Assembly: GCF_009807095.1 (NCBI RefSeq)
Contig: NZ_WUCC01000007.1
Location: 62,001 to 126,000, forward strand
Origin: Rathayibacter sp. VKM Ac-2754
Lineage (GTDB): Bacteria; Actinomycetota; Actinomycetes; Actinomycetales; Microbacteriaceae
DNA: 64,000 nucleotides
Direction: 5' to 3'
Below the pieces are notes generated by a model. It saw only the letters and a program-made list of their open reading frames with translations. It was not told the DNA's origin and made no database searches. Positions 7,369 to 27,791 of the stretch are shown in pieces. The stretch's first letter is position 1, and each line of letters opens with the position of its first letter. Both the position numbers and the translations under genes were made by a program.

Positions 7369-7773
7369 TCACCAGGCGTAGATCCGGGAGATGATCTCGG
7401 GTCGAGGGTGCTGAGACGGCCCCGGGAAGCTGATGACGACGGGCAGGCCGTCCGGTCCTTCGCCCTCGACCAGGGTGAAGCCGTCGAGCTCTCGGCGCGA
7501 GACCCGAGTCGACCTCTCGCGCAGCAGCTCCTCGCAGCGATCGAGCTCGGCCGGGTCGGATGCGGTCCAGATCAGGTACTGGATGCCGACGGCGCCGAGC
7601 GGGTGCTGGTCGCGATCGCCGACGGCGCGGAGGTAGAGCTGGTCCTTCTCCGGTCCGACGAGCAGCGCCGCTGACGGGGTCCGCACGGAGGTCCGTGCGG
7701 TGAGCAGCTGCTCGTAGAAGTGGACGCTGGCGTCGAGGTCGGTCACGAACATCACGGCGGAGGCGAGCTTCAC
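7369..7773 (-). CDS. VOC (glyoxalase/bleomycin resistance) family protein
   Basis: 134 residues, one vicinal oxygen chelate unit made of two beta-alpha-beta3 modules. The opening AVMFVTDLDASVHFYEQLL is the classical start of the fold, and the second half has GIQYLIWTASDPAELDRCEELL and a closing RPEIISRIYAW. Conserved metal-ligand candidates are not obvious by eye. Its ATG overlaps the stop of the upstream USP gene (ATGA, 7770-7773), so it is the second gene of an operon that appears to be under DosR-type control. Substrate unknown. Confidence 0.85.
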   Translation of the reverse strand: MKLASAVMFVTDLDASVHFYEQLLTARTSVRTPSAALLVGPEKDQLYLRAVGDRDQHPLGAVGIQYLIWTASDPAELDRCEELLRERSTRVSRRELDGFTLVEGEGPDGLPVVISFPGPSQHPRPEIISRIYAW

Positions 7774-8627
7774 GGCCTGATCGCCCCGACCACGGCATCG
7801 GGAGCCGCGACGCGCACGGTACAGCCCGCCGGGATGATGGCGACGGCGGTGTGCATCCGCATCACCACCGCGTGGTCGGTGCTCTCACCGGCGCTGGTGC
7901 GGGAGAGATCGTCCGTGCCCAGCACGAGGAGGCCGGCGCCGCCGGCGGTCGCGAGGAGACCCTGCACCGTCTCACCGTGCGCGAACCGGAGGGTGACCGC
8001 GAGGCCGGGATACCGCTCTCGGAGGGGCGCGATGACGCCGGCGGCCTCGAGTCGCCTGCCGTCGAGCTCCTCGTCGAACCGGCCCGCGGGAGCGTCGGCC
8101 GCGTCCTCCTCGACCGGGTGCAGCCGCCAGCTCCGCGCGACGACGAGCGATTCGGAGCGGCGATCGGCCTCGGCGGCGGCGAACTCGAGCGCGGCCTGCG
8201 ACGCGGGCGACCCGTCGAACCCGATGACGAAGCCGGGGGCGCCGTGACGAGCGTCGATCGGCACGATGACGACCGGGACGACGCCGCGCTGGCTCAGCGC
8301 CATGCCGAGCGAGTGCTCGAAGCGGCCGGGGTGCTCGTTGCGGGTGTCGGTTCCGACCACCAGGAGCGAGCCGTCCCGGCCGCGTCGTTCGAGCTGCTCG
8401 ACGGGGTCGCCGTGCAGCAGCTCGGCGGTGAAGCGGATGCCGGAGCGGTCCTGCTGGAGCGTCGCGGCGAGGTCGTCGAGTGCGGCCTTCGAGAGAGGGC
8501 GCTCGTCGGACGGCCCCGCGACGTGGCAGAGGATCACGTGGCGGTCGAGCAGGTACTCGCGGATGATGGCCCAGTCGAGGGCGGTGCGGGCGGCGGCGGT
8601 GCCGGTCCAGGCGACGAGGGTGGTCAT
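7770..8627 (-). CDS. Universal stress protein, two USP domains
   Basis: 285 residues, with tandem USP domains at about 1-140 (MTTLVAWTGTAAARTALDWA to VVPVVIVPID) and 148-280 (GFVIGFDGSPASQAALEFAA to AVAIIPAG). The ATP-binding G-x2-G-x9-G-S/T motif is degenerate in both (VVGTDTRNEHPGRF and VLGTDDLSRTSAG), so nucleotide binding is uncertain. AAGGAG lies 10-15 bases before the ATG at 8627. It is transcribed away from the four-domain USP gene; the 334-bp spacer holds two DosR-type boxes. Tandem USPs are typical members of DosR regulons. Confidence 0.93.
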   Translation of the reverse strand: MTTLVAWTGTAAARTALDWAIIREYLLDRHVILCHVAGPSDERPLSKAALDDLAATLQQDRSGIRFTAELLHGDPVEQLERRGRDGSLLVVGTDTRNEHPGRFEHSLGMALSQRGVVPVVIVPIDARHGAPGFVIGFDGSPASQAALEFAAAEADRRSESLVVARSWRLHPVEEDAADAPAGRFDEELDGRRLEAAGVIAPLRERYPGLAVTLRFAHGETVQGLLATAGGAGLLVLGTDDLSRTSAGESTDHAVVMRMHTAVAIIPAGCTVRVAAPDAVVGAIRP

Positions 8628-8795
8628 GGCGGTCTCCTTCGTGGTCGGCGGATCAGTCGGTGGAGAGCGCGTCGATCGCCACGGTGACGCGCGCAGTGTG
8701 CCCGAGCAGCGCACCCCGCGCGCGGGCCCGGTCGAGCTCGGAGGGGCGGGGAGGGCCGTCGACTCCACCGTGCGCGCGTCCCAGCCCCCGGACCA

Positions 8796-8809
8796 GGGCC
8801 GTTGGTCCC
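8796..8809 (-). promoter_or_regulatory. DosR/DevR-type box
   Basis: On the minus strand it reads GGGACCAACGGCCC, matching the GGGAC-n4-GKCCC layout of actinobacterial DosR sites. It lies in the spacer between divergent USP genes, 168 bp before the left one and 152 bp before the right one. Confidence 0.6.
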
Positions 8810-8880
8810 GAGATCGAAGCCCGTCCGGGGCCGTGCACCGACGTGCGTCGAGCCTCCGGTGCGCGGTTCGGCACGACCGC

Positions 8881-8894
8881 GGGACGTTCGGCCC
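8881..8894 (+). promoter_or_regulatory. DosR/DevR-type box
   Basis: GGGACGTTCGGCCC, a close match to the local consensus, 67 bp before the start of the four-domain USP gene. The rest of the 334-bp spacer (8628-8961) shows no gene. Confidence 0.7.
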
Positions 8895-8961
8895 TGTCAG
8901 CGTCACCCCGCGCGGGTGACGCTGGAGTGAGCCGGATCCGGCTGCCAGCAAGGGATGCCTG

Positions 8962-10737
8962 ATGAATGCACAGCTCGTCGTCGGATGGGACGGCTCCGCT
9001 TCGGCGCGACACGCGCTCGCGTGGGCTCTGGCGCAGACCTCTGAGGAGGCGCAGGCCCGGGGACTCCTCCTCGTCGAGGTCGTCGACGGCCTCGATCGCT
9101 TCAGCGGCACCGACTTCAGCGCTGATCCGCGGGCCGCCGAGGCCGTCTCGCTCGAGACCGCGGCCGCCGACGCCGAGCGCGCGCATCCCGGCTCGCGGAT
9201 CGACACCCGCCTCCTCACCGGCGACCCGGTCGAGCAGCTCGCGCGTCTCGCCGGACCGGACACCCTCCTCGTCGTCGGAGACCGCCGGCGCACCGTGCTC
9301 CCGATGCGGGGCGCCTGGAGCGTCGGCGCCCGGCTCGCCGCTCGCGCCGCAGGGCCCGTCGCGATCATCACCCACGACGCGCCGAGCGACGGGACCGGCG
9401 TCCTCGTCGGGATCGACGACTCCGACGACGCTCGCGCCGCCCTCGAGTTCGCGGCCGGCTGGGCCGCGCGCACCCGGCAGACGCTGCACGTGCTGCACGC
9501 CTGGCGCACCCCGTTCCTCTGGAACGACAGGGTCCCGCACGCGATCCTCGTCGAGGAGGTGGCGGCGCAGCACGCCGAGCTCCTCGCCGACGCGGTCGCC
9601 GAGGCGCGGAGGCTGCACCCCGGGCTCGTCGTCGAGGGCATCGAGGTCGACGGAGTCGCCGCCCGCACGCTCCTCGAGGCCGCTCCCGGTCGCGCGCTGC
9701 TCGTCGTCGGCGACGGAGGAGTCTCGCGCCTCGAGCGGATGCTGATCGGCTCCGTCGGTCACGACATCCTCGTGAATCTCGCGGTTCCCACCGTGATTAT
9801 CGGGCGGAAGACCCGCGCTCCGAAGCCGAAGCCCGTCGCCGCGGCGCCCGCGCCGCTGACGGCGCCGACCAGGACGATCGTCGCGTGGGGCGGCGACGAG
9901 CCGTCCCGGACCGCCGTCGAGTGGGCCCTGGCCCGCCAGGCCTCCGGCAGCGTCGAGGTGGTCATGATCGCAGACGAGTCGGCCGGCGTCCCCGACCCGG
10001 CCGCCGCCGCCGAGGTCGTCGCACTCGACGAGCGCGCCGTCGACCGCCTGATCGAGCAGGTCGGGAGCACGGACGTCGTCCTGCACGGCCGCGTGGTGCG
10101 CGGCTCCGTGCTGCACACCCTCGCCGGTCTGACGGATTCCGACACCCTCCTGGTCGTCGGCACCGAGGACCGCGAGGGTCCGCGCCTCCGCTTCGGCCTC
10201 TCGGTCGGCGCGCACCTGCCCGCTCTCGCCCGAGGACCGATCGCGATCGTCCCGCGCACGGTCGACTCGTCGCTGCGCGGAGTCGCGGTCGGAGTCGACG
10301 GCTCGGCGGCGTCGAACGCGGCGATCGTGGTGGCGGCCGCCGAGGCCGCGCGCCGCGACGAGACCCTGCACCTGGTGCACGCGTGGACGGAGCCGGCCCT
10401 CTACGACAGCACGTTCCTCCTCGACGGCGAGTTCATCCGCTCGCTCGAGGCCGACCACTGCGCGATCCTGCACGCGGCGGAGCAGGTGGCCCTGCTGAGC
10501 GACGTGCGGATCGAGACCCATCTGGTCGGCGGCGACCCGGCCCACGCCCTCGCCGAGATCAGAGCGGCGATGATCGTGATCGGTACCCGCGGGCTCACGG
10601 GATGGCGCCGCCTCCTGCTCGGATCGGTCAGCCGCGACCTGATCCTGAATCTCGACGCCCCCCTCATCGTGGTACGGCATCCGGAGGCCGCTCGGTCGAT
10701 CAGCAGCCTCGTCCGCGACCGGGCGGTGTCCGCATGA
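8962..10737 (+). CDS. Universal stress protein with four tandem USP domains
   Basis: 591 residues, about twice the usual tandem USP length. The four domains are roughly 1-140, 145-285, 305-435 and 440-575. Domains 2 and 4 keep the ATP-binding G-x2-G-x9-G-S motif ([18 protein letters not shown] and [18 protein letters not shown]). Domains 1 and 3 are degenerate ([31 protein letters not shown]). A Pro/Ala-rich linker ([16 protein letters not shown]) joins the halves, suggesting internal duplication of a two-domain protein. Its stop overlaps the phosphoketolase start (ATGA), so the two are co-translated. Two DosR-type boxes precede it. Confidence 0.93.
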
Positions 10738-13235
10738 GCGTCCTCGACCTCCCGTCGATCACCTGGCCGTCCCGCACTCCCGAGCCCCTGTCCGAGCGCA
10801 CGCTCGATGAGCTGGACGCGTGGTGGCGGGCCGCGAACTACCTCTCGATCGGGCAGATCTACCTGCTCGACAACCCGCTCCTGCGCGAACCGCTCGCGGC
10901 GGAGCACATCAAGCCGCGCCTGCTCGGGCACTGGGGGACGACTCCGGGGCTCACCTTCGTCTACGCGCACCTCAACCGGGTGATCCGCGAGCGCGATCTG
11001 AACGCGATCTTCGTCACCGGGCCGGGACACGGCGGCCCGGGGATGGTCGCCAGCACCTACCTCGACGGCACCTACAGCGAGGTGTACGACGACATCGACC
11101 GGAGTGTCGACGGTGTCCGGAAGCTGTTCCGGCAGTTCTCGTTCCCCGGCGGCATCCCCAGCCACGTCGCCCCCGAGACACCGGGCTCGATCCACGAGGG
11201 CGGCGAGCTCGGCTACTCGCTCTCGCACGCCTACGGCGCCGTGTTCGACAACCCCGACCTGCTGGTCGCGGCGGTCGTCGGCGACGGCGAGGCCGAGACC
11301 GGACCGCTGGCGACGAGCTGGCACTCGAACAAGTTCATCGACCCGCTGCACGACGGCGTGGTCCTGCCGATCCTGCACCTCAACGGGTACAAGATCGCCA
11401 ACCCGACCGTCCTCGCCCGCATCCCCGAGCGCGAGCTCGAGCAGCTGATGCGCGGTTACGGCCATACGCCGTACCTCGTCTCCGGAGGCTTCGACGGCGA
11501 GGATCCGCGCGCCGTCCACCGCCGCCTCGCCACCGCGATGGACCTGGCGCTCAACCAGATAGCCGAGATCAAGGCGGATGCCCTGTCGGGTCGCCTCGAC
11601 GGTCGGCCCGCGTGGCCGATGATCATCCTCCGCACGCCGAAGGGCTGGACGTGCCCGCCGGTGATCGACGGTCTGCCCGCCGAGGACAGCTGGCGCTCGC
11701 ACCAGGTGCCGCTGGCGAACGTGCGCGAGCGGCCCGAGCACATCGCCGTTCTCGAGGGGTGGCTGCGCTCCTACCGGCCCGAGGAGCTCTTCGACGAGGC
11801 CGGCGCCCCGATGCCGCTCGTCACCGCCCTCGCGCCGGTCGGTGAGCGCCGGATGAGCGCGAACCCCGTCGCCAACGGCGGACTGCTGCGGAAGCCGCTG
11901 CACCTGCCCGACTTCCGCGACTACGCCGTCGACGTGCCCTCGCCCGGAGCGACGACCAGCTCGGCGACCACCGTGCTCGGGACGTGGCTGCGCGACGTCA
12001 TCGTCGCCAACCCGCACGACTTCCGCATCTTCGGACCGGACGAGACCGCGTCGAACCGGCTGCAGGCCGTCTTCGAGGTCACCGACAAGCAGTGGGACGC
12101 CGAGGTGCGGGTCGCCGACTTCGACAACCACCTCGCCCGCTCCGGCCGGGTCGTCGAGATGCTGAGCGAGCACCAGTGCCAGGGCTGGCTCGAGGGCTAC
12201 CTGCTCACCGGCCGCCACGGGCTGATCAACTCCTACGAGGCGTTCGTGCACATCGTCGACTCGATGGTCAACCAGCACGCGAAGTGGCTGAAGTCCTCGC
12301 GCGAGATCGCGTGGCGGCGGCCCGCCTCGTCGCTGAACTACCTGCTCAGCTCGCACGTCTGGCGGCAGGATCACAACGGCACCTCGCACCAGGACCCGGG
12401 CTTCATCGACCACGTGATGAACAAGAAGTCCGGCATCGTGCGGGTCTACCTGCCGTTCGACGCGAACACGCTGCTCTCGACCTACGACCACTGCCTCCGC
12501 TCGGTCGACTACATCAACGTGGTCGTCGCCGGGAAGCAGCAGGAGGCGAATTGGCTGTCGATGCCCGAGGCGATCGAGCACTGCACGCGGGGCCTGGGCA
12601 TCTTCGCCTGGGCCGGCTCCGAGGTCGCGGGGGAGGAGCCGGATGTGGTTCTCGCCTGTGCCGGCGACGTCCCGACCCTCGAGGTGCTCGCCGCGGTGGC
12701 CCTGCTGCGCGCCGAGGTGCCGACGCTGAAGGTGCGGGTCGTGAACGTCGTCGACCTGATGCGCCTGCAGAGCGAGGGCGAGCACCCGCACGGGCTGAGC
12801 GACGCCGACTACGACGCCGTGTTCACGACCGACAAGCCGGTGGTCTTCGCGTACCACGGCTATCCGTGGCTGATCCACCGGCTCACCTACCGCCGCCACG
12901 GGCACGCGAACCTGCACGTGCGCGGCTTCATCGAGGAGGGCACCACGACCACGCCGTTCGACATGGTGATGCTGAACGACCTCGACCGCTATCGACTCGT
13001 CCTCGATGTGCTCGACCGCGTCCCCGGTCTCGCCGCGCGCGAGGCCGTGTTCCGCCAGCGGATGCAGGACGCGCGCCTCGAGGCCCGCGCCTACACCCGC
13101 GCGCACGGCGAGGACATCCCCTCCGTCGCCCAGTGGAGCTGGACGGGGAGCGGACCGCAGGGCGCGACGTACCATCGCGCCGACGTGCTCCCGCACGAGC
13201 ACGAGGCGGCGGAGCGCGCGGCACAACTGCAGTGA
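10734..13235 (+). CDS. xfp: Xylulose-5-phosphate/fructose-6-phosphate phosphoketolase
   Basis: 833 residues, close to the ~800-825 usual for Xfp. This TPP enzyme cleaves xylulose 5-P or fructose 6-P with phosphate to acetyl phosphate plus glyceraldehyde 3-P or erythrose 4-P. Signatures: [17 protein letters not shown] near the N-terminus, [30 protein letters not shown] (TPP/Mg site), the mid-domain [11 protein letters not shown] and the C-terminal [20 protein letters not shown] 10734 overlaps the USP stop. Co-expression with a USP under a DosR-type box suggests an oxygen-limited acetyl-phosphate/ATP route through acetate kinase; no ackA or pta is visible in the window. Confidence 0.96.
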
Positions 13236-13312
13236 TCCGGTGCGGCGAGACTCCTCGCTCGGGTGCGGCTCGGGGAGTCGGCGGTACGGCTCGCTGAAGG
13301 CGCGCTCGAGTG

Positions 13313-14647
13313 TCAGAACGGTGGCGGTGCGTCGACGAAGCGGGGTCGCGGGGGAGGATCCGGTGGGCCCGGGAGGACGACGGCGGGTCGAGTGGTGACC
13401 CGGCGGCCCGTCGGCGTGGTCCACTCCGCGGTGCCGTCGGGATGGAGGCGGTAGGTCCAGCGGTCGCCGTGGCGGACGTGATGGTGGGCCATGCAGAGGG
13501 AAGCCAGGTTGTCGAGGGCTGTCTCGCCCCCGTTCCGCCACTCGACCGTGGGGTCGGCCTCGCTGGTGGAGGCGGGCCGAGTGCAGCCGGGGAACCGGCA
13601 GGTCCGGTCCCGCAGCTGCAGGTGGAGGCGCATCCGCGGCGGTGGGACGCGGTGCGTCCGTCCCACGGAGGCCACGGTGCCGGTGTCCGGGTCGGTCAGG
13701 ATCCGGGTGAAGGAGGCGCCGACGCCGACCAGCTCTCGGGCGATGCCTGCGGGAACGAGGCCGTACCCGTCGAGGTCGGCCGGGGCGTCATCGGCTCCGG
13801 AGGCGGTGCTCGCGGCGAGCGTGAGCCGCACCTCGGCCCGCACGCCCGGTACGAACGTCGGCGAGGCCGTCGGCCCGTCGGCGTTCGGGGTGGTGCCGGC
13901 GATGTCGCCGTCGCAGAGCAGGTCGGCGAGCGCGTCGGCGCGCAGCTGGGCGAGCGTGCGGTCATCGCCCGAGCTCTCGCCGTCGCGGAGCGACCGGGCG
14001 ATCCGGTCGAGGCGGTTGTACGCGCCCATCGCTTCAGGCGCGGGCAGCAGTGCGCAGAGCGTCGCCATCCCGTCGATCTCCGGGCTTACCCACACCGCTC
14101 GATCCTGCCGGGCGCGGACGTGCCGCACGGCGAGAGGCTCGTCGTGAAGGGCGTCCCTCATCCGCGCCACCGCGCGGCGCAGCTGGGTCGGAGTCCTCGT
14201 GAGCGCCATCTCGACCGCACGCTCGTCCAGCGCGCCGCGGGATGCGGCCGGAAGAGAGGCCGCGGCGTCGCAGATCACCTCGACCGCCTCCCACAGCAGC
14301 CGGCCCTCGGCGAGCGCCGCCCGCGTGCGGGGCAGGTCCTCGAACAGCAGCTGCGCGAGCTCGAGGGTGCGCGTCACGGCGCGCTCCGTCATCCCCTGGC
14401 CGACCGCTAGCTCGGCGCGGATCGACCGCTCGAACAGCTCGTGCGACTCGTTGCGCGACAGGCAGCCGCCCCGGGCGAACGCCTCCGGGATCTCCGACGC
14501 CACACCGTAGGCGAGGTGCAGCGCCGCCGCCCGCGCGTACAGCATCTGCGCGGACGTGAACCCCGCACGTGCTGCGAGCTCGGTGAGCGACTCGATCGCA
14601 CCGAGCCGCTCCGCCACCTCCGGCGAGCTCTTGTCTTCGTCATTCAT
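13313..14647 (-). CDS. DUF222 / HNH endonuclease domain protein
   Basis: 444 residues. The long helical DUF222 region (about 20-320) is followed by an HNH nuclease motif near 345-395: RDRTCRFPGCTRPA, then EADPTVEWRNGGETALDN, then LCMAHHHVRHGDRW. These proteins are multicopy in actinobacterial genomes and have been called mobile, although a role is unproven. It sits among DosR-type genes but has only a weak candidate box upstream (14663-14676, 12 of 14 matches to the local pattern). The catalytic His/Asn pattern looks intact. It converges on the phosphoketolase. Confidence 0.88.
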   Translation of the reverse strand: MNDEDKSSPEVAERLGAIESLTELAARAGFTSAQMLYARAAALHLAYGVASEIPEAFARGGCLSRNESHELFERSIRAELAVGQGMTERAVTRTLELAQLLFEDLPRTRAALAEGRLLWEAVEVICDAAASLPAASRGALDERAVEMALTRTPTQLRRAVARMRDALHDEPLAVRHVRARQDRAVWVSPEIDGMATLCALLPAPEAMGAYNRLDRIARSLRDGESSGDDRTLAQLRADALADLLCDGDIAGTTPNADGPTASPTFVPGVRAEVRLTLAASTASGADDAPADLDGYGLVPAGIARELVGVGASFTRILTDPDTGTVASVGRTHRVPPPRMRLHLQLRDRTCRFPGCTRPASTSEADPTVEWRNGGETALDNLASLCMAHHHVRHGDRWTYRLHPDGTAEWTTPTGRRVTTRPAVVLPGPPDPPPRPRFVDAPPPF

Positions 14648-14662
14648 ACGAGTATTGAACCA

Positions 14663-14676
14663 GGGACCTCCGACAC
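14663..14676 (+). promoter_or_regulatory. Weak candidate DosR-type box
   Basis: GGGACCTCCGACAC differs at two positions from the best local sites. It is 16 bp upstream of the HNH gene start, but its relevance is doubtful. Confidence 0.25.
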
Positions 14677-20126: not shown

Positions 20127-20209
20127 TACCTCCGGCACCACCGCCCGCGCAGACTCGGTCGCGGAGCTCCATCGCCGCACCGCGCGGCACCGGGGCGGAA
20201 TCGAGCGTC

Positions 20210-21079
20210 ATGAACGCGCCCATCGTCGTCGGGCTCTCCGACTCCTCCCACAGCCGCGCCGCCCTCGACTGGGCGCTGCACCGCGCGAAGCTCTCCGGCA
20301 CCCCCGTCCTCGCCGTGTTCGTGTCCGACACGGACGCCGCCGCCGGCCACCCCGGCGCGGCCACGATCCAGGCCGCGCACGGCGAGGTCGTCCTCGCCCG
20401 CGACGCGTTCGGCTCCGCGTCGAAGGCGCCCGACATCGCCGTCACCACCGCCCTCCGACGCGGCCGCCCGGTCGACGTGCTGACCGAGGACGCCCGCGGT
20501 GCCCGGATGATCGTCGTCGGCACCCACGACCACCGCGACGGATCCGAGACGAGCACCCGGCACTCGCCCGCCGTGGATCTCGCCGCCCGCTCCACTGCCC
20601 CTGTCGCAGTCGTCCCGCTCCCCGAGTCCGGTCATCACGGCGGCGTCCTCGTCGGCATCGACGGGTCGCCGGCCGCGCACGCCGCTGTCCTCTTCGCCGC
20701 CCGCGACGCAGCGGAGCTCGACGAGCCGCTCACTGTGGTGAACGTCTGGACACCGCTGCAGGCGTGGGTCCCCGGCTTCGTGCCGGACCAGGGCTTCTAC
20801 GACCTGCTCCGCACCGCCAGCCTCGACATGCTCGCTCTCGAAGTCGCGGCCGCTCGCGAGCAGTTCCCCGAGCTCACGGTGCGCAGCACCTCCGAGACAG
20901 GCGACCCCGCGACCGTCCTCACCCGCCTCGGGAAGGACGCCCTCGAGATCGTCGTCGGCGCCACCTCGCGTCACGGCCTCCAGCGCCTGCTCCTCGGCTC
21001 CGTCGCCCACGACATCCTCCGCGGCGCCTCCCGTCCCGTGATCGTCGTCCCCGACCCCGCCGTCTCGTCAGCGGTCTGA
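20210..21079 (+). CDS. Universal stress protein, two USP domains
   Basis: 289 residues. Domain 1 spans about 1-138 (MNAPIVVGLSDSSHSRAALD to APVAVVPLP). Domain 2 spans about 145-285 (GGVLVGIDGSPAAHAAVLFA), with a near-canonical ATP loop VVGATSRHGLQRLLLGSVAH. The frame is open upstream to 19955, but the conserved domain begins at ATG 20210. It is followed after 20 bp by the VIT1-like transporter, so the two probably form an operon under the back-to-back DosR-type boxes. A broken copy of its 3' end lies at 23.8 kb. Confidence 0.92.
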   Translation: MNAPIVVGLSDSSHSRAALDWALHRAKLSGTPVLAVFVSDTDAAAGHPGAATIQAAHGEVVLARDAFGSASKAPDIAVTTALRRGRPVDVLTEDARGARMIVVGTHDHRDGSETSTRHSPAVDLAARSTAPVAVVPLPESGHHGGVLVGIDGSPAAHAAVLFAARDAAELDEPLTVVNVWTPLQAWVPGFVPDQGFYDLLRTASLDMLALEVAAAREQFPELTVRSTSETGDPATVLTRLGKDALEIVVGATSRHGLQRLLLGSVAHDILRGASRPVIVVPDPAVSSAV

Positions 21080-21099
21080 AATCGTCGAGAGGATCCAGG

Positions 21100-21834
21100 A
21101 TGACCTCCACCACGGATCCGACTCCCGGCGCGCATCGCGACGAACCTCACGGCGGGGCGATCCAGGCGCGGCTGAACCGGCTGCGCGCCGGCGTTCTCGG
21201 CGCGAACGACGGCATCGTGTCTGTCGCATCGCTCGTCGTCGGAGTCGCCGGAGCGACCACGCAGACCTCTGTTCTTCTGACGGCCAGAGTCGCCGGAGTC
21301 GTCGGTGGCGCGATCTCCATGGGCCTAGGAGAGTACGTCTCCGTGAGCAGTCAGCGCGACAGCCAGCGCGCCCTGATCGCGAAGGAGCGCCGCGAGCTCG
21401 CGGAGGATCCTGTCGCAGAACTGGTGGAACTCGCCGGGCTCTACGAAGCCGAGGGTCTCAGCGCGACGACGGCACGACAGGTCGCGTCGGAGCTGACCGA
21501 GCACGATGGTCTTGCTGCGCATCTCGAGACCGAGCTCGGGCTCTCCGAGGAGACCGTCGCGAGCCCGCTCCAAGCAGCCGGCGCGTCAGCACTCGCCTTC
21601 ACGATCGGCGCACTGCTCCCGCTCCTCGCGATCCTGCTGCCGCCTGCAGAGTGGCGGGTCCCCGCCACCTTCGCCGTCGTGCTTCTCGCCCTCGCGCTCA
21701 CGGGGTACGTCAGTGCCCGCATCGGCGGCAGCCCGCCGCTGCGTCCCACGGTGCGGGTGGTCGTCGGGGGCGCGCTCGCTCTCGCGGCGACGTTCGCCAT
21801 CGGATCGTTGGTGGGGACCTCCGGCGCCGTCTGA
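21100..21834 (+). CDS. VIT1/CCC1-family Fe2+/Mn2+ transporter
   Basis: 244 residues. The N-terminal RLRAGVLGANDGIVSVASLV signature and GGAISMGLGEYVSVSSQRDS are diagnostic of the VIT1/CCC1 family. About five membrane helices are visible: two before residue 85, a cytoplasmic metal-binding-type helical insert (about 85-155, Glu-rich), and three at the C-terminus. It moves iron or manganese out of the cytoplasm; vacuolar storage in eukaryotic relatives is irrelevant here. GAGAGGATCCAGG precedes the ATG. Its place behind a USP in a DosR-type operon suggests a role in iron handling during respiration arrest. Confidence 0.92.
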   Translation: MTSTTDPTPGAHRDEPHGGAIQARLNRLRAGVLGANDGIVSVASLVVGVAGATTQTSVLLTARVAGVVGGAISMGLGEYVSVSSQRDSQRALIAKERRELAEDPVAELVELAGLYEAEGLSATTARQVASELTEHDGLAAHLETELGLSEETVASPLQAAGASALAFTIGALLPLLAILLPPAEWRVPATFAVVLLALALTGYVSARIGGSPPLRPTVRVVVGGALALAATFAIGSLVGTSGAV

Positions 21835-21856
21835 CCGACGCACGCGCGGCGCGTTC

Positions 21857-21876
21857 GCAGGGAACTTCTTCCCCTG
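21857..21876 (+). terminator. Weak hairpin after the VIT1-like gene
   Basis: GCAGGGAA faces TTCCCCTGC with a short loop and a bulge, 23 bp after the stop. There is no T run, so only moderate support. Confidence 0.35.
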
Positions 21877-21949
21877 CTTCCGATCGCCGGCTGATCCGAC
21901 CCGCCGAAGAGGTGCTGCGGTCCCGCAGCGGTCGTCAGGGTGGGCGCGG

Positions 21950-22297
21950 CTAGCGGAGGGGTGTCGTCGGTGCCGGTGCGGTCGCGAGCCCGGCGGTGCG
22001 GTTCTCGGGTTCCGGGCTGACACGGAGCCCGTTGACGGTGTAGGAGTCCTGCACGAGCTGATGGATCCATGCGGGGTTGATGCTGGGCGACCGGTTGCCC
22101 GCGAAGGGGAACTCCAGGGGAATCGCGGGGTGCAGCCATATGGCGCATCGTCCGCTTCCTCCCTCGATCCCGTTCTTCCACGAGAGGTAGAAGGACTCGC
22201 CCTTGCTGAGCTTGGTGCCGATCACCAGCTGAAGGTGCGCGAGCAGACGGTCGTTGAACTCAGCGCTGGTGCCGGAGTTGTAGTGCAGCTTGCCCAT
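21950..22297 (-). CDS. DUF7882-like small protein
   Basis: 115 residues. The pattern MGKLHYNSG, then FNDRLLAHLQLVIGTKLSKG, then CAIWLHPAIPLEFPFAGN, then INPAWIHQLVQDSY matches a short protein family that I recall as common in Microbacteriaceae (DUF7882; sometimes mislabelled as ATP-dependent DNA ligase). The core is about 95 residues, with a Pro/Thr-rich tail. Function is unknown. The conserved sequence begins at ATG 22297, and the reading frame upstream to 22552 is not protein-like. It converges on the VIT1-like gene. Confidence 0.75.
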   Translation of the reverse strand: MGKLHYNSGTSAEFNDRLLAHLQLVIGTKLSKGESFYLSWKNGIEGGSGRCAIWLHPAIPLEFPFAGNRSPSINPAWIHQLVQDSYTVNGLRVSPEPENRTAGLATAPAPTTPLR

Positions 22298-22621
22298 GGG
22301 GCGTCCCGCCGATGCCTGCACCCGAGAAGGGTGCTGTTCGCCACGCGAAGGGTTCGGATGGGGCTCTGAGACTAGCCTCTGCTCCGACGACGTCGTGCCG
22401 TCTCGGGCATCGTGAAGGTCCGACGGGCAGCAGGGGGAGAGCGCAGCGACCACACGCTGATTCCCTGGTCCGGATGGAGTTCGCTGCTGAATCCCCATGA
22501 GGTGAGGCGTGCGCGTACCGTGGCTGCCGCCGGCCGCTTCGCGGAGGTGCACGAACCTTCTCGTTCAAGATCGACTGTCACCGCTGGCCGAGAGGGCCTC
22601 CTCCTATCGAGTCGAGCCGTC
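22298..22621. other. 324-bp spacer without a recognised gene
   Basis: It lies between the DUF7882-like gene (leftward) and a small rightward ORF. Several frames stay open, but none gives protein-like sequence. I see no clear hairpin, DosR-type box or RNA gene. Confidence 0.4.
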
Positions 22622-22873
22622 ATGTCCCCCCAGGATCAGAGTCAGCAGGACGTCATCCGAGTGCTTCGCGATCTGATCGCCGCTCTCTCGCCACCGGGTG
22701 ACGTCCATCCCGGCCATGCTGCGCACGTCGTCGCGGAGTCTGCGGAGCTTCTCCGCTCGGCGGAGGCAGCGGTCGCTGACGCCAGGCGCCGACGCCTGCC
22801 CACGTGGATGCTCCCGCGAGCGGACGGGTTCGACCTGCTCCGTCCGCGGCTCTTCCCCCCGGCAGTCCTCTGA
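22622..22873 (+). CDS. Hypothetical small protein
   Basis: 83 residues with a helical, Ala-rich middle (VRVLRDLIAAL to ESAELLRSAEAAVADARRRR) and a Pro/Leu-rich C-terminus. I do not recognise the family. There is no good ribosome binding site, and the frame is open for 210 bases upstream, so the true start or even its reality is uncertain. Its composition is more protein-like than the neighbouring frames. Confidence 0.4.
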   Translation: MSPQDQSQQDVIRVLRDLIAALSPPGDVHPGHAAHVVAESAELLRSAEAAVADARRRRLPTWMLPRADGFDLLRPRLFPPAVL

Positions 22874-23116
22874 GTGCTGGGAACGGCGCGCAGAGGGCAG
22901 CGTCACCTCCGTCGTACGACTCGTTCGCTCGCGGGTCGGAAGATCCCCTCTCGGAGCACTCGACGAGGGGCGCCCGTCACGGACGACTGCTCAGCCCGGG
23001 TGGTATCCCGTTCGGCTGGCAGGTCGTGCAGGAGCGCGACGTAGGGTCGACGGATCGCATTCCGGTCCCCGGTGCCCTGAACGACGTTCGTGGGGCCCTG
23101 ACCGAAGGACGACTTC

Positions 23117-23479
23117 ATGATGACCCTGTCTTACACCGGCGGCTCGCTCCAGCTCGAGGACGCGACCGCTTCCGCCGTGGTGCGGTACTCGATGACTCTG
23201 GCGCAGCACCACGAGATGGGAACCGTCACGCTCGATGACGCGGCGACCCCTGCGCCCAGGTCTCAGGTGATCCTCGTCGTGGGCTCTGGGGTCCCGCTGT
23301 CGGTCCGGACCGCCCGACGCACCGCCGACAGCTCCGAGCACGGCGAGACCGGGCAGGACCTCGATCACCGGACAGACGCCCGGAACTCACCCCCGAACGT
23401 GCTCGCCGCCACGGCGGAGGAGTCGAGGCTGGACGCGGAGAACGCGCGCGTCTTCGACAGCGGGTTCGACCTCTTCTGA
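23117..23479 (+). CDS. Hypothetical protein within the stress island
   Basis: 120 residues. The first ~65 form a likely beta-rich domain (MMTLSYTGGSLQLEDATASA, then SRVILVV-like strands); the rest is charged and probably disordered, ending FDSGFDLF. GAAGGA lies 8-13 bases before the start, which supports translation. No family recognised. It sits between the USP/VIT1 operon and the PNPOx-like gene, but no convincing DosR-type box precedes it. Confidence 0.5.
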   Translation: MMTLSYTGGSLQLEDATASAVVRYSMTLAQHHEMGTVTLDDAATPAPRSQVILVVGSGVPLSVRTARRTADSSEHGETGQDLDHRTDARNSPPNVLAATAEESRLDAENARVFDSGFDLF

Positions 23480-23662
23480 CGACGACCATCGCTCGCCCCG
23501 CAGGCCGACGGAGCCACACCCGGAGAACGCGCTGCCGACGTCCTCCGCAACTCGACGGGAAGCCGGCGGTCCGTCATCGGCTTCATCGCAGTCGCACTCG
23601 TCTGCGCGGGCATCGATTCGTTCGGCAGCGGAGGGGACGCTTCCGCACGGAGGCGGGTAGTC

Positions 23663-23676
23663 GGGACCTTCGGCAC
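23663..23676 (+). promoter_or_regulatory. DosR/DevR-type box
   Basis: GGGACCTTCGGCAC, 224 bp before the PNPOx-like gene and 81 bp before the USP remnant. The original USP promoter may have been captured by the flavoprotein gene. Confidence 0.6.
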
Positions 23677-23756
23677 TCGATTCGGATCACCAGGTCGGGC
23701 AGCGTAGCTGTCGCGGCGGTCGAGATACGAGCGACGTCGGACGGTCAGGAGACCTC

Positions 23757-23867
23757 ATGATCACCAGCATCAGCACCGCCCACACTGCTCCTCGGCTCCG
23801 TCGCCCCCGACACCCTCCGCGGCGCCTCCGCCCCGTGATCGTCGTCCCCGTCCCCGCCGCCGCCTGA
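23757..23867 (+). pseudogene. Remnant of a universal stress protein gene (3' end)
   Basis: Bases 23789-23858 closely repeat the 3' end of the USP gene at 20991-21060 (GCTCCTCGGCTCCGTCGCCC..., then CTCCGCGGCGCCTCC and GTGATCGTCGTCCCC). One base is lost in the Ala-Ser-Arg-Pro region, which shifts the frame. An ATG at 23757 opens a 36-residue frame that enters the old gene out of frame and exits in the original frame as VIVVPVPAAA. The 5' ~90% of the gene is missing. It looks like a decayed duplicate of a USP. Confidence 0.7.
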
Positions 23868-23899
23868 TGGCCCCCACCCGATCACGTCAGAAGGACCTC

Positions 23900-24403
23900 A
23901 TGCCCACCGCTGGCAACACGACCCTCCGCGAGATCACCACCGAGGAGTGCTGGCGGCTGGCGCGCACCACCGACATCGGCCGCCTCGCCGTCATCGATCA
24001 CCGCCCCTCCACGCGTGGCCCGAGCGCCGCGATCGTGCCCGTCAACTTCCTCGTGCACGACGGAGCGCTCTTCTTCCGCAGCGGGTCGGGCAGCAAGATG
24101 ATCGATCTCACCCAGCACCCGAGGGTCGCGTTCGAGTTCGACGGGCACCGGGGCCGCCGTCACTGGAGCGTCATCGTCCACGGCGACGCCCACCGTCTGC
24201 ACTCCGACATCGACATCGAGAACGCCGGCATCCAGCAGCTCGAGGCGTTCCACGACGACGACAAGAACAACTTCGTCCGCATCGACGTCGAGTCCATCAC
24301 CGGCCGGTCGTTCTACCGCTGGCCCGTGTACCGGCTACGCCGGGCCCTGCGCACCATGCGCGCCCGCCGCCCGAGCCCGACCAGCCTGCGCACCGCGGAG
24401 TAG
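23900..24403 (+). CDS. Pyridoxamine 5'-phosphate oxidase-family flavoprotein
   Basis: 167 residues, a single split-barrel FMN-binding fold. ECWRLARTTDIGRLAV is the usual first strand-helix, VPVNFLVHDGALFFRSGSGSK contains the conserved barrel strand with phosphate-binding Arg and Ser/Lys, and HPRVAFEFD and WSVIVHGDAHRL complete it. Members reduce F420, FMN or biliverdin-type substrates, and related proteins occur in the mycobacterial DosR regulon. ATG 23900 is preceded by GAAGGA. An upstream DosR-type box and a strong shared terminator bracket the gene. Confidence 0.88.
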   Translation: MPTAGNTTLREITTEECWRLARTTDIGRLAVIDHRPSTRGPSAAIVPVNFLVHDGALFFRSGSGSKMIDLTQHPRVAFEFDGHRGRRHWSVIVHGDAHRLHSDIDIENAGIQQLEAFHDDDKNNFVRIDVESITGRSFYRWPVYRLRRALRTMRARRPSPTSLRTAE

Positions 24404-24420
24404 CGACACGAGTCGTTCGC

Positions 24421-24482
24421 AACCGAGGGTGAGACGACCGATCCCCGCCGTGAGGCAGGGATCCTCGCTCTCACCCTCGGTT
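24421..24482. terminator. Bidirectional hairpin terminator
   Basis: The outer stem is AACCGAGGGTGAGA (24421-24434) against TCTCACCCTCGGTT (24469-24482), 14 perfect pairs, with an inner GATCCC/GGGATC pair. It separates the convergent PNPOx-like and P-type ATPase genes. Confidence 0.8.
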
Positions 24483-24507
24483 CTGCACGCCGAACGGCCG
24501 GCTCCCG

Positions 24508-27210
24508 TCAGGCGGGGCCGACCGCTCGCCGCGCCAGCAGCCCGCGCTCGACAGCCTTCCCCGCCTCGGTCAAGAGGAGGATCGCCGCGGCGATCACCGC
24601 GGTGTACGCCCACTCGCGCACGCCCAGCGGCGCCGAATGGAACCACGGGTGCATGAACGGCGCGTACACGAACACCAGCTGCAGCAGCAGGAGGGTCGCA
24701 CCCGAGATCCAGACCGCCCGGTTGCCGCGCAGCACCGCGAGCCGGAGGCTCGACGCCCGCAGGAACCGGCAGCTGAACAGGAACGCGAGCTGGCCGAGGG
24801 TGAGCATCGTGACGGCCGTGGTCTGCGCCTGGGCGCTGCTCGCCCCGGCGCCGATCTCGAAGAAGAAGACGCCGATGGTCGCCGCGGTGATCAGCGCGGT
24901 CACCCAGACGATCCGTCCGACGTAGCTGCGGTCGAGGATCCCGCGACCGGGTCGCGTGGGCGGCCGCCGCATGATCCCGGGCTCGGCCGGCTCGGTCGCG
25001 AGGGCCAGCGACAGGGTGATCGCGGTGATCAGGTTGACCCAGAGGATCTGCGTCGCCTGGAGCGGCAGGGTGAACCCGATCAGGACCGCGAGCAGCAGGA
25101 CGAGCGCCTGCGCGGAGGTCGTCGGCAGCAGGAAGAGGATCGACTTCTGCAGGTTGTCGCGGATGCGGCGCCCCTCCTTCACCGCGTGCCCGATGGTCGC
25201 GAAGTCGTCGTCCGCGAGGACGATGTCGGCCGCCTCCTTCGTCGTCTCGGTCCCCTTGATCCCCATCGCGACGCCGATGTCGGCCCGGCGGAGGGCGGGT
25301 GCGTCGTTGACCCCGTCGCCGGTCATCGCCACGACCTCGCCGCGCGACTGCAGCGCGGCGACGATGCGCAGCTTGTGCTCGGGGCTCGTGCGGGCGTACA
25401 CGTCGACGATCGGTGCCGCCTCGGCGAGCTGCTCGTCGGTCATCGCCTCGACGGCGTCCCCGGTGAGCACGGCGGAGTCGGCCTCGGCGATCCCCATCTC
25501 GCGCGCGATGGCGAGCGCGGTGCCGGCGTGGTCGCCGGTGATCATCTTCACGCGGATGCCCGCGGCGTGCATGCGTGCGATCGCTGCGACGGCCTCGGGG
25601 CGCGGCGGGTCGAGGATCCCGGCGACCCCGAGGAACACCAGGCCGGAGTCGAACTCCGACTCGCCGAGCGTGGTCGGCTCGGCGGTCGCGTGCGAGCGGG
25701 CGGCGGCGAGGACGCGCAGGCCCCGGGCGCCGAGCTCGTCGACGATCCGCGCCCAGCGGGCCCGGTCGAGCGGTGCGGTGCCGCCGTCGGCCCGCAGCTC
25801 GTGACTGCAGTGCTCGAGGACGACTCCGGGAGCGCCCTTGAGGAGGATGCGGGTCGTCCCCTCCGCGACCCGTGTCCGGGTGGCCATGTACTTCGTCTCG
25901 GCCGCGAACGGGACGACGGCGAGGCGCTCGGCGCCGTCGTCGTCGAATCCGCCCTTGCGGGCGAGGGTGCGCAGCGCCCCCTCGGTCGGGTCGCCGACGA
26001 TCTGCCAGCCGCCCTCGCCGTCGACGAGGTGCGCGTCGTTGCAGAGGGCGAACGCCTCGATCAGGGCGTCCAGCTCGCTCTCGCCCGCGGGCGTGATCGC
26101 GCCCTCGGGCGCGTAGCCCGTGCCGGCGACGTGGTGGCTGCCGGAGCCGGTGACGACCGTGCGTACCGTCATCTCGTTGCGGGTCAGGGTGCCGGTCTTG
26201 TCGGTGCAGATCGTGGTCACGGAGCCGAGGGTCTCCACGGCCGTCAGCTTGCGGACTATCGCGTGGTGCGAGGCCATCTGCCGCACGCCCAGCGCGAGGG
26301 TGATCGTGATGAGCGCGGGGAGCCCCTCGGGGATCGCGGCGACGGCGAAGCCGATGGTCGCCGGGACAAGCTCGGCGAGTTCGCGGTCGTGCAGGAGCCG
26401 GCCGACGAGCAGCATCACGCCGGCGACGGCGATGATCAGCAGCGAGATCCGCCTGCTGAAGGAGTCGAGCTGGCGGGTCAGGGGGGTGGTGGTGCTCTTC
26501 GTGCCGGTGACGAGGGCGTGGATGCGCCCGATCTCGGTGTCCAGACCTGTGGCGGTGATGACGGCGGTGCCGTCGCCCGCCGTGACGTGGGTGCCCGAGA
26601 AGACCATGTCGGTGCGGTCGCCGATCCCGCTGGCCGCTGGGACGGGCGCGGTGCTCTTCTCGGTCGGCAGCGATTCCCCGGTGAGGGCGGACTCGTCGAC
26701 GCGGAGGGTGCTCGCACCCAGCAGTCGGGCGTCGGCGGGGATCCTGTCGCCCGGTTCGACCCGGACGACATCACCGGTGACGAGGTCGGCCGCGTCGATG
26801 TTGACCCACGCACCCTGGCGTTTCGCCTTCGCCGAGAGCGAGAGCATCGCCCGGATCCCGTCGAGCGCCCGTTGCGTGCGCCCGTCCTGAACGACTCCGA
26901 CGATCGCGTTGATCACCGTCACCGAGAGGATCACGATCGCGTCGATCCCGTCGCCGACGACGAAGGTGACGATCGCCGAGGCGAGCAGGACGTAGATCAG
27001 GATGTCGTGGAACTGCCGCAGGAACGTCAGGACCGCGTTCGGGCGGCGCTGGGCGGGCAGCGCGTTCGGGCCGTGCTCGGTCAGCCGCTGCGCGGCGTCG
27101 GTCGCACTCAGGCCGCCCTCGCTCGCACCCAGCTCGGTCAGCACCTCCTCGGCGGTCCGGGCGTGGGCCGCGGTCTCCCAGGCAGGGGGTGCGAGCGAGA
27201 GCGAGGCCAT
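24508..27210 (-). CDS. P-type cation-transporting ATPase, CtpF/SERCA-like
   Basis: 900 residues: actuator domain with TGES (177-180), phosphorylation site D337 in CTDKTGTLT, M4 motif PEGLP (294-298), hinge TGDGVNDAPAL, and a C-terminal cation ATPase domain with about six membrane helices (VNLITAITLSLALATEP). The N-terminal cation_ATPase_N region is intact. This is the P2-type layout (Ca2+/Mn2+/Na+ class) shared with M. tuberculosis CtpF, a DosR regulon member. Ion specificity cannot be read by eye. ATG 27210 overlaps the stop of the DoxX-like gene by one base. The long open frame upstream is the DoxX shadow. Confidence 0.94.
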   Translation of the reverse strand: MASLSLAPPAWETAAHARTAEEVLTELGASEGGLSATDAAQRLTEHGPNALPAQRRPNAVLTFLRQFHDILIYVLLASAIVTFVVGDGIDAIVILSVTVINAIVGVVQDGRTQRALDGIRAMLSLSAKAKRQGAWVNIDAADLVTGDVVRVEPGDRIPADARLLGASTLRVDESALTGESLPTEKSTAPVPAASGIGDRTDMVFSGTHVTAGDGTAVITATGLDTEIGRIHALVTGTKSTTTPLTRQLDSFSRRISLLIIAVAGVMLLVGRLLHDRELAELVPATIGFAVAAIPEGLPALITITLALGVRQMASHHAIVRKLTAVETLGSVTTICTDKTGTLTRNEMTVRTVVTGSGSHHVAGTGYAPEGAITPAGESELDALIEAFALCNDAHLVDGEGGWQIVGDPTEGALRTLARKGGFDDDGAERLAVVPFAAETKYMATRTRVAEGTTRILLKGAPGVVLEHCSHELRADGGTAPLDRARWARIVDELGARGLRVLAAARSHATAEPTTLGESEFDSGLVFLGVAGILDPPRPEAVAAIARMHAAGIRVKMITGDHAGTALAIAREMGIAEADSAVLTGDAVEAMTDEQLAEAAPIVDVYARTSPEHKLRIVAALQSRGEVVAMTGDGVNDAPALRRADIGVAMGIKGTETTKEAADIVLADDDFATIGHAVKEGRRIRDNLQKSILFLLPTTSAQALVLLLAVLIGFTLPLQATQILWVNLITAITLSLALATEPAEPGIMRRPPTRPGRGILDRSYVGRIVWVTALITAATIGVFFFEIGAGASSAQAQTTAVTMLTLGQLAFLFSCRFLRASSLRLAVLRGNRAVWISGATLLLLQLVFVYAPFMHPWFHSAPLGVREWAYTAVIAAAILLLTEAGKAVERGLLARRAVGPA

Positions 27211-27791
27211 CAGACGAGCCAGGGGAGGCGCTGGACGAGGGGCAGCTTCTTCCAGCGGTCCCCGAGGCCCCAGGTGTCGCCGGCCGAGAGCACAGCGACC
27301 GCGATCAGGGCCAGCGCGTAGACGATGTGGTAGTCGACCAGCGGATTCGTCGACGCGGCGTTCGCGCCGAACGGCCACTCCGCGAGGTACATCAGCATCA
27401 TCATGTAGCTTCCGACCACGGCGCTGACGCGCAGGCCGATGCCGAGCATCACCGCGACTCCGACGCCGAGCATGCCCAGCTGGAAGAGCACGTCGGTCGC
27501 GGGGCTCGCGATCGCCGTGAAGAACGGCTTCAGCGGCCCGACGACGCCGTCGCCGAGGAGGAAGCCCTGACTCGGCGTGCCGCCGGCGACCCACGCGCGC
27601 TCGGCGGGCGTCGAGAAGCCGAGGCCGAACGTCTTGTCGAGGAAAGCCCAGAGGAAGATGAAGCCGGTCGCCAGGCGGAGCACGGCGAGGACGCGTCGCC
27701 CGAGGCTGCTGGAGACCGGGGTGCCGGTGGCGAGTGGTTCTGAGCCGCGCAGAGTGCTCGGGCGCTGATCGAGGTCGGTGGGTGCGGTCAT
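27210..27791 (-). CDS. DoxX-like membrane protein
   Basis: 193 residues with four hydrophobic segments: VLAVLRLATGFIFLWAFLDK, VLFQLGMLGVGVAVMLGIG, VSAVVGSYMMMLMYLAEWPF and YHIVYALALIAVAVLSAGD. The first matches the DoxX opening, and the long loop with FGLGFSTPAERAWVAGG resembles the DoxD/DoxX group (quinone-linked). It is first in an operon with the CtpF-like ATPase and has a DosR-type box 75 bp before its start at 27791. A role in membrane redox control during hypoxia is plausible but inferred. Confidence 0.85.
   Translation of the reverse strand: MTAPTDLDQRPSTLRGSEPLATGTPVSSSLGRRVLAVLRLATGFIFLWAFLDKTFGLGFSTPAERAWVAGGTPSQGFLLGDGVVGPLKPFFTAIASPATDVLFQLGMLGVGVAVMLGIGLRVSAVVGSYMMMLMYLAEWPFGANAASTNPLVDYHIVYALALIAVAVLSAGDTWGLGDRWKKLPLVQRLPWLV

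What the first reader, a model, noticed from the sequence alone, without database searches (positions are those of the whole stretch)
7369..27791. A DosR-type dormancy island in a non-mycobacterial actinobacterium
The sensor-regulator pair at 15.8-18.1 kb is flanked by genes of the kinds known in DosR regulons: four USP genes, CtpF-like ATPase, PNPOx-like flavoprotein, BON, DoxX-like and VIT1-like proteins. Additions not typical of mycobacteria are a phosphoketolase co-translated with a USP and a butanediol-dehydrogenase-like gene. The genes lie together, with matching 14-bp boxes in their promoters, so a whole regulon seems packed in one ~20-kb block. Orthology and box placement are seen directly; the physiological role is inferred from the mycobacterial system.
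Basis: partly seen in the sequence, partly recalled or inferred. Interest (0 to 1): 0.82.

Follow-up and report, generated by a model that had tools for sequence, protein, structure and literature searches.

The report
Portable low-oxygen response gene island
A Rathayibacter bacterium carries, as one inserted 20-kb block, a complete relative of the oxygen-sensing dormancy switch known from tuberculosis bacteria, together with its likely target genes and a fermentation enzyme that such blocks seem to have picked up more than once.

Summary
The window (genus Rathayibacter) has a DosS/DosT-type heme-GAF kinase and a DevR-type regulator among USP, BON, PNPOx, VIT1, P-type ATPase, phosphoketolase and butanediol-dehydrogenase-like genes. 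A matrix built only from published, mostly predicted, Streptomyces OsdR sites ranks four promoter boxes of this block 1st-4th in 64 kb; three of six perfect palindromic boxes of the genome lie here; boxes are conserved in relatives. The box at 27866 is weak by that matrix; two boxes were missed (8796, 20113).

New here: the block is a discrete insertion, 7362-27911, between the stop codons of two convergent genes that lie 0-46 bp apart in eight congeners. Two close relatives have it (one without the kinase-regulator pair) at this site; in three others the site is empty and the block lies elsewhere, once on a plasmid-like contig. Phosphoketolase sits within 10 kb of the kinase in 18 of 67 family genomes (0.6 expected), and these phosphoketolases are polyphyletic.

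The kind is known (mycobacterial DosR, Streptomyces OsdR, Rhodococcus equi). The mobility and the phosphoketolase link I did not find in print. Hypoxic/NO induction is inferred, not shown.

The parts
7362..27911 (.). the island: 20,550-bp insertion between the stop codons of an AsnC/Lrp-type gene (6855-7361 +) and a small gene (27912-28169 -)
   Evidence: blastn of eight empty sites joins window ~7361 to ~27912 with 0-46 bp between; AsnC-type gene by Pfam, small gene without Pfam hit
7369..7773 (-). glyoxalase-superfamily gene
   Evidence: PF00903
7770..8627 (-). USP gene (two Usp stretches)
   Evidence: PF00582
8796..8809 (.).
   Evidence: OsdR matrix, tied 2nd in 64 kb; one of six palindromic genome-wide hits
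8881..8894 (.). Dos box GGGACGTTCGGCCC, 81 bp before the tandem USP
   Evidence: OsdR matrix rank 1; aligned box in 5 of 5 relatives compared, with one letter changed in Leaf185 and one in G306
8962..10737 (+). 591-aa tandem USP protein (3 Usp stretches pass; I read four repeats)
   Evidence: PF00582; only solved relatives at E 1e-8 are 2jax ('TB31.7') and 3cis
10740..13235 (+). phosphoketolase (XFP), 831 aa as read from the GTG 2 bp after the USP stop
   Evidence: PF09364/PF03894/PF09363; NF003619 above cut-off
13313..14647 (-). DUF222 gene, also in the Leaf185 and G302 copies, not in the G301/G299/G306 copies
   Evidence: PF02720; comparison
14818..15603 (-). USP gene
   Evidence: PF00582
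15652..15665 (.). Dos box (GGGACGTTCGGCAC on the - strand) shared by a USP and the kinase-regulator operon
   Evidence: OsdR matrix rank 4; aligned in 4 of 5 relatives, absent in G305
15777..17450 (+). DosS/DosT-type sensor histidine kinase (GAF-GAF-HisKA_3-HATPase); start set by the ATG aligned in the genus
17447..18136 (+). DevR-type response regulator, overlaps the kinase stop by 4 bp
18198..19271 (-). (R,R)-butanediol-dehydrogenase-like Zn-ADH
   Evidence: PF08240/PF00107; best solved relative 6ie0 E 1.6e-88
19309..19980 (-). BON-domain protein
   Evidence: PF04972, 3 stretches
20099..20112 (.). Dos box GGGCCGAAGGTCCC
   Evidence: OsdR matrix, tied 2nd; aligned box, with changes, in 4 of 4 relatives compared
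   Evidence: letter-perfect in the window and 4 of 4 relatives compared; chance-level by the OsdR matrix (rank 60)
20210..21079 (+). USP gene
   Evidence: PF00582
21100..21834 (+). VIT1 family protein
   Evidence: PF01988, scanned as part of the longer ORF 20764-21834
23663..23676 (.). Dos box GGGACCTTCGGCAC
   Evidence: OsdR matrix rank 9
23785..23868 (+). remnant of the 3' end of a USP gene between box and PNPOx
   Evidence: window 23785-24415 aligns to the end of the Leaf185 USPc gene plus PNPOx; sequence
23900..24403 (+). PNPOx-like flavoprotein
   Evidence: PF12900; 6eci E 3.7e-15
   Evidence: PF00122/PF00689/PF00690
27210..27791 (-). putative DoxX/DoxD-like membrane protein, adjoining the ATPase gene on the same strand
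   Evidence: DoxD E 0.0024, below cut-off
27866..27879 (.). weak Dos-like box before the DoxX-like/ATPase genes
   Evidence: OsdR matrix rank 61, but the same site recurs with small changes in G301 and Leaf185

Best explanation
The block is a self-contained DosR/OsdR-type regulon island. Inferred working: the kinase binds heme in its first GAF domain through one histidine; O2 on the heme keeps it off; loss of O2, or NO/CO binding, turns it on; it phosphorylates the DevR-type regulator; the regulator binds GGGACSTTCGGCMC-type boxes and switches on its own operon and the units around it: USPs, BON-ADH, VIT1, PNPOx, ATPase, and a USP-phosphoketolase operon. The phosphoketolase (pentose/fructose phosphate to acetyl phosphate, then ATP through acetate kinase) and the butanediol-dehydrogenase-like enzyme would give an oxygen-limited cell ATP and a redox outlet while USPs and other proteins protect it. 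Shown here: anatomy, homology, residues, boxes, their conservation, the discrete insertion, and copies at other places. Inferred: gas sensing, induction, operon structure, metabolic role; that the island entered the ald-UDG site once, in the ancestor of three sampled species; and that related copies have moved between chromosomal sites and at least one plasmid-like replicon.
For: RR and HK homology; heme His in 118 of 118 and distal Tyr in 117 of 118 distinct related kinases, the residues being His149/Tyr171 of DosS and His147/Tyr169 of DosT (PMC4082495 passages). OsdR-matrix ranks; AGGGACCTTCGGCCCC, listed for SCO0167 and SCO0216, holds the same motif. Genome-wide scarcity of perfect boxes. 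Footprints in relatives. In 112 distinct actinobacterial loci, GGGMCNNNNGKCCC occurs at 0.595/kb upstream of island-type genes, 0.012/kb in their bodies and 0.044/kb in the rest of the loci; the reversed pattern gives 0.031, 0.014 and 0.023. Insertion; the filled genomes are one clade of 3 among 12 (100/99). Copies elsewhere: G301, G299, G306. Plasmid-borne relatives: Frondihabitans NZ_CP014514; an Arthrobacter U41 plasmid typed conjugative, with kinase and regulator but no USP cluster annotated. Acetate kinase present.
Against: No expression, heme-binding or footprinting data. Boxes 27866 and 20113 score at chance with the OsdR matrix, and 23663 only 9th. Across the loci, a perfect box lies upstream of only a minority of genes: HK 20 of 111, USP 35 of 138, PNPOx 8 of 56, XFP 6 of 24, CtpF 0 of 33. 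No integrase among the ORFs scanned, no tRNA, no Rfam match, and no terminal repeat beyond chance (longest shared word of the two ends 9 direct and 8 inverted, random pairs averaging 8.3). GC3 is only slightly below that of the other window genes. So how the block moves is unknown. Excess similarity to G301 is seen in some island genes only, and one flank gene (Luc, 70% of 187 four-fold sites) is as high as some of them.
Confidence: 0.85

Rival explanations
1. Same regulator type, different job: the system mainly senses NO or redox state in plant tissue or soil and drives a microaerobic fermentative programme, not dormancy.
For: Phosphoketolase and an ADH, which I recall as untypical of the mycobacterial set, sit in the block. 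Phosphoketolase recurs beside the kinase. DosS/DosT also bind NO and CO.
Against: USP, PNPOx and USP-ADH targets are shared with the OsdR set, whose genes are reported as induced by low oxygen and by an NO donor in Streptomyces (PMC5069765).
Confidence: 0.35
2. The island is ancestral at the ald-UDG site and was lost or moved in the other species, rather than inserted.
For: Two genomes, G171 and G305, have no UDG match, so the site could not be read there; the tree of the site is rooted at its midpoint only.
Against: Eight genomes keep tight empty sites with the two stop codons 0-46 bp apart; the filled genomes form one well-supported clade among empties; repeated precise deletion is less simple.
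Confidence: 0.12
3. Phosphoketolase lies near the kinase because stress genes cluster, not because it belongs to the regulon.
For: Only 6 of 24 XFP upstream regions hold a perfect box. The window's XFP shares a USP promoter.
Against: 18 of 67 genomes against 0.57 expected within 10 kb; linked XFPs are polyphyletic (at least 6 label changes forced, one-clade tree rejected); the boxed promoter aligns in all six Rathayibacter USP-XFP copies compared.
Confidence: 0.2

Closest known systems
DosR/DevR-DosS/DosT dormancy regulon of Mycobacterium tuberculosis
   Same: DevR-type regulator with near-identical recognition helix, heme-GAF kinase with the His and Tyr, USP genes around the pair, related box
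   Different: One kinase in this block, one compact inserted block, phosphoketolase and butanediol-dehydrogenase-like gene; no hspX-type gene or narK2 among the island ORFs I scanned; the box core is CSTTCG, and the AT-centred box GGGACTTTAGTCCC was not found in the window. Mycobacterial gene content recalled.
OsdKR region of Streptomyces coelicolor (SCO0167-SCO0219; PMC5069765)
   Same: Clustered targets around the pair, USP and Zn-ADH, PNPOx, boxes including GGGACCTTCGGCCC
   Different: No phosphoketolase named in the paper's main text; nitrate reductase and PPDK there, not among the ORFs scanned here; not described as an insertion in the sections I read
DosR-box regulon of Rhodococcus equi 103S (PMC2947987)
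   Same: DosR homologues and boxes outside mycobacteria, and an Xfp noted in the same genome
   Different: The passages and section read do not connect Xfp with DosR; the box table is in a supplement I could not open

Membership tests
DosR/DevR-type response regulator | closest to DevR among solved regulators, with receiver Asp and recognition-helix KT[VI]KN | tested here: met
   phmmer alignment to 3c3w, E 3.6e-73; roles of these residues recalled
DosS/DosT-type sensor kinase | two GAF domains, HisKA_3, HATPase; first GAF with proximal His and distal Tyr | tested here: met
   domains; residues, with roles from PMC4082495 passages
DosS/DosT-type sensor kinase | binds heme and responds to O2, NO, CO | not testable with these tools
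   no protein data
DosR regulon | Dos/Osd box in promoters of the neighbouring genes and of the pair itself | tested here: met
   weaker for 23663 and 27866
DosR regulon | induced by hypoxia/NO through the regulator | not testable with these tools
   no expression data
DosR regulon | mycobacterial core targets (USP, hspX, nitroreductase, PNPOx, P-ATPase; list recalled) | tested here: inconclusive
   USP, PNPOx, type-II P-ATPase present; no Hsp20 or nitroreductase among the island ORFs scanned; the rest of the genome was not searched for them
Genomic island | patchy presence with empty site and copies elsewhere | tested here: met
Genomic island | integrase, att-like end repeats, tRNA target or odd base composition | tested here: not met
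   no tRNA, no integrase among ORFs scanned, end repeats at chance level, GC3 only slightly low; so not filed as an integrative element

The most novel reading that the evidence does not exclude
The DosR regulon here behaves as a portable unit: regulator, sensor and targets travel together between chromosomal sites and plasmids of Microbacteriaceae, and phosphoketolases of different lineages have been drawn into such units repeatedly as a fermentative arm. A bolder addition: acetyl phosphate from the phosphoketolase could itself help phosphorylate the regulator and lock the switch on, as acetyl phosphate phosphorylates OsdR in vitro.
Probability: 0.5. Interest if true: 0.7.

Novelty: new variant of a known kind. 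Interest (0 to 1): 0.56.

Why it matters
The DosR switch is mostly studied as a tuberculosis dormancy system. A compact, movable version with its targets, in a genus where 7 of 15 sampled species have the kinase and 8 do not, gives natural with/without pairs for asking what the regulon is for. The recurrent phosphoketolase points to a concrete use (ATP by acetate formation at low oxygen) and bears on the question of why aerobes keep fermentation enzymes.

Tried and rejected
The mycobacterial box GGGACTTTAGTCCC with up to 2 mismatches: no hit in the window, one elsewhere in the genome, so no sign of the AT-centred box. Foreign base composition as evidence for transfer: rejected; GC3 of the 17 island genes measured is 0.81-0.96 (mean about 0.91), of 13 other window genes 0.86-0.96 (mean about 0.93) (means worked out by hand). 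The OsdR matrix on 120 loci from many genera: only modest excess (24 sites at 12 bits or more against 6 in shuffles for 40 family loci, 56 against 22 for 80 named loci), because box centres vary; replaced by the GGGMCNNNNGKCCC pattern with a reversed control. The C19 exact box as a further target: it overlaps a mechanically listed ORF without a Pfam hit; left unclear. An RNA element in the conserved USPc leader: a hairpin is predicted but no pair has a two-sided change and Rfam finds nothing; left open. In one search one 'unlinked' XFP (L182) lies on a 27-kb contig and could in truth be linked; it was dropped (44 rows, 8 changes, at least 6 forced). Four linked rows have long branches (L092, L137, L149, L097), whose places are unsure and which weigh on the one-clade test. 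The XFP place list was truncated, so 18 of 67 is a lower bound on linkage among the 67 genomes with a listed place. DoxX label: only sub-threshold.
Full report
WHAT WAS CHECKED. The window is G000:C22:62001-126000 of a 3.97-Mb genome. A same-genus genome, G263, has a kinase-bearing contig of the same length, 411,026 bases, as Rathayibacter sp. Leaf185, so I take the genus to be Rathayibacter and G263 to be Leaf185. The alanine dehydrogenase next door probably starts near 6718; an AsnC/Lrp-type gene (6855-7361 +) lies between it and the island.

THE SWITCH. The regulator is closer to DevR (E 3.6e-73) than to any other solved regulator (next VraR, 2e-39). The kinase has GAF-GAF-HisKA_3-HATPase; its first GAF matches DosT and DevS. 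In the alignment to DosT, His186 and Tyr208 of P0003, 22 residues apart, pair with the DosT His and Tyr of the HPPMR and NLYLT motifs. PMC4082495 (passages) names His147/Tyr169 in DosT and His149/Tyr171 in DosS as heme ligand and gas-discriminating residue. Among 118 distinct related kinases His is kept in 118 and Tyr in 117.

THE BOXES. A matrix made only from the 26 OsdR sites of PMC5069765 Table 1 ranks 8881, 8796, 20099 and 15652 as the four best sites in 64 kb; 23663 is 9th, 20113 and 27866 are 60th and 61st. Those 26 sites are that paper's predictions, some tested by EMSA; I read its abstract, part 1 of 3 of its Results, the section on the region around osdRK, and the Discussion. Genome-wide, GGGMCSWWSGKCCC has 6 sites, 3 in the island (P 2.7e-6); the looser GGGACSTTCGGCMC with one mismatch is no longer clearly above its control (20 against 13). 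The layout is divergent promoters: 8796/8881 between USP-glyoxalase and USP-XFP; 15652 between a USP and the kinase-regulator operon; 20099/20113 between BON-ADH and USP-VIT; 23663 before PNPOx; 27866 before the DoxX-like/ATPase genes. In aligned island copies of the genus the boxes stand out: 8881-type in 5 of 5 relatives (one letter changed in two of them), 15652-type in 4 of 5 (absent in G305), 20099-type with small changes and 20113 letter-perfect in 4 of 4. The 27866 site recurs with small changes in G301 and Leaf185. So 20113 and 27866, though weak by the matrix, are probably real. Across 112 distinct loci of 120, GGGMCNNNNGKCCC occurs at 57 places in 95,847 bases upstream of island-type genes, 6 in 516,590 bases of gene bodies and 66 in 1,497,674 of the rest; reversed controls are 3, 7 and 34. 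Most single genes still lack a perfect box (HK 20 of 111, USP 35 of 138, CtpF 0 of 33 have one).

THE BLOCK IS AN INSERTION. ald and the UDG gene are 21.1 kb apart here, 19.3 kb in Leaf185 and 15.0 kb in G302, but 0.92-0.98 kb in eight other Rathayibacter genomes, 1.37 kb in G304 and about 1.2 kb in G300, where ald matches only in part; G171 and G305 have no UDG match (15 genomes). Blastn of the eight joins window ~7361 to ~27912 with 0-46 bp between: the island lies between two convergent stop codons. G302 has the same site filled by USP-XFP-DUF222, ADH, USP and PNPOx without the kinase-regulator pair; its only kinase match is a 56% relative about 280 kb away. G304's right flank is too diverged to read exactly. 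On a tree of the flanks, the three filled genomes form one clade (100/99) beside nine empty ones (midpoint root). G301, G299 and G306 have empty sites yet carry the island elsewhere. G301's copy lies on a 190-kb contig with a phage-type integrase and a DUF3560 gene; 45% of a 5-kb stretch of it matches an R. festucae plasmid at 84%. A complete plasmid of Frondihabitans (same family) carries kinase, regulator, USP, BON, VIT and PNPOx genes, with transposases nearby. Kinase relatives occur on 34 and regulator relatives on 35 of 72,556 plasmid records, but at least one of these is chromosome-sized (11.9 Mb), and of four further contexts viewed, Arthrobacter U41 and Streptomyces F2 show no annotated USP cluster, Rhodococcus WAY2 a PNPOx gene only and S. 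clavuligerus one USP. At four-fold sites window and G301 agree at 62% of 702 in pyruvate carboxylase, 60% in ald and 62% in UDG, but 75% of 463 in XFP, 74% of 338 in HK and 71% of 549 in the ATPase (Fisher P 4e-6, 1e-4 and 8e-4 against pyruvate carboxylase). Against this: the flank gene Luc is also at 70% (of 187); USP4, USPa, USPb, BON and VIT are at or below background; and towards G299 and G306, XFP (70%), RR (70-72%) and ADH (67-71%) exceed pyruvate carboxylase (59-60%) but HK (59-61%) does not. This fits lateral exchange of parts of the island, and does not prove it.

PHOSPHOKETOLASE. The genome has two: the island copy and one on C10 (73% identical), whose closest relatives on the tree sit in congeners, three of them (G045, G116, G171) without the kinase. 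In the family sample, 94 of 299 genomes have the kinase at E 1e-60 and 161 of 299 a phosphoketolase at E 1e-100; of 67 with both among listed places, 18 have them within 10 kb, 0.57 expected (own genome and Leaf185 included). Linked copies occur also in Frankia, Pseudonocardia, Amycolatopsis, Curtobacterium, Subtercola and others. They do not form one clade (25 linked against 19 unlinked rows, at least 6 changes forced, AU test 1e-56, with long branches among the linked rows). Acetate kinase is present on C18. Hence the proposed role: acetyl phosphate to ATP when oxygen fails.

MECHANISM. Shown: anatomy, homology, residues, boxes and conservation, insertion, copies elsewhere. Inferred from DosS/DosT and OsdKR work: gas sensing by heme, phosphotransfer, induction by hypoxia/NO. 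Inferred from enzyme families: fermentative ATP and redox balance.

WHAT IS KNOWN. OsdR of S. coelicolor controls a clustered set with USP, ADH, PNPOx and related boxes. R. equi has DosR boxes and an Xfp, the latter not tied to DosR in the passages and section read. Searches for DosR with Microbacteriaceae (no paper), phosphoketolase with DosR (41), DosR regulon in non-mycobacteria (29), DevR/Arthrobacter (42, 20 of 87 listed), phosphoketolase with USP/hypoxia (52, 20 of 37 listed), Rathayibacter with hypoxia (53), DosR with plasmid-borne/transfer (87, 10 of 45 listed) and a wider one (91) listed nothing that, by title and start of abstract, describes this island, its mobility or the phosphoketolase link; passages of PMC7856521, PMC6106888 and PMC3388012 did not either. 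The library holds open-licence papers only.

VERDICT. Real, and of a known kind, with two new aspects: an insertion-borne form that lies at different places in related species, and repeated phosphoketolase recruitment.

Noticed in passing
window 20160-20210 and 15740-15777: The 5' leaders of the USPc gene and of the kinase gene are almost letter-invariant in the genus copies compared; a hairpin is predicted for the USPc leader but without compensatory changes.
   Followed up: partly
window 18715-18728: An OsdR-matrix hit (rank 5) lies inside the ADH gene, and hits lie inside ADH in four other island copies and in G302; coding constraint or an intragenic regulator site.
   Followed up: no
window 23663-24403: PNPOx sits behind its own box and the 3' remnant of a USPc-like gene, whereas in four relatives PNPOx directly follows USPc; this suggests duplication of a USPc-PNPOx unit followed by loss of one half of each copy.
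   Followed up: partly
L195 (G302:C1:1637400-1656500): The same insertion site holds a version of the island with targets and weaker boxes but no kinase-regulator pair; a distant pair (56% kinase) may serve it in trans.
   Followed up: partly
L203 (Frondihabitans plasmid NZ_CP014514.1): A plasmid-borne DosR-type set with oleate hydratase, transhydrogenase genes and IS elements; a phosphoketolase fragment without a listed gene lies at about 165.4-166.7 kb of the record.
   Followed up: partly
window 13313-14647: A DUF222 gene (weak HNH hit) lies next to XFP in the window, Leaf185 and G302 copies only; G305 has a more distant DUF222 gene at another place of its locus.
   Followed up: no
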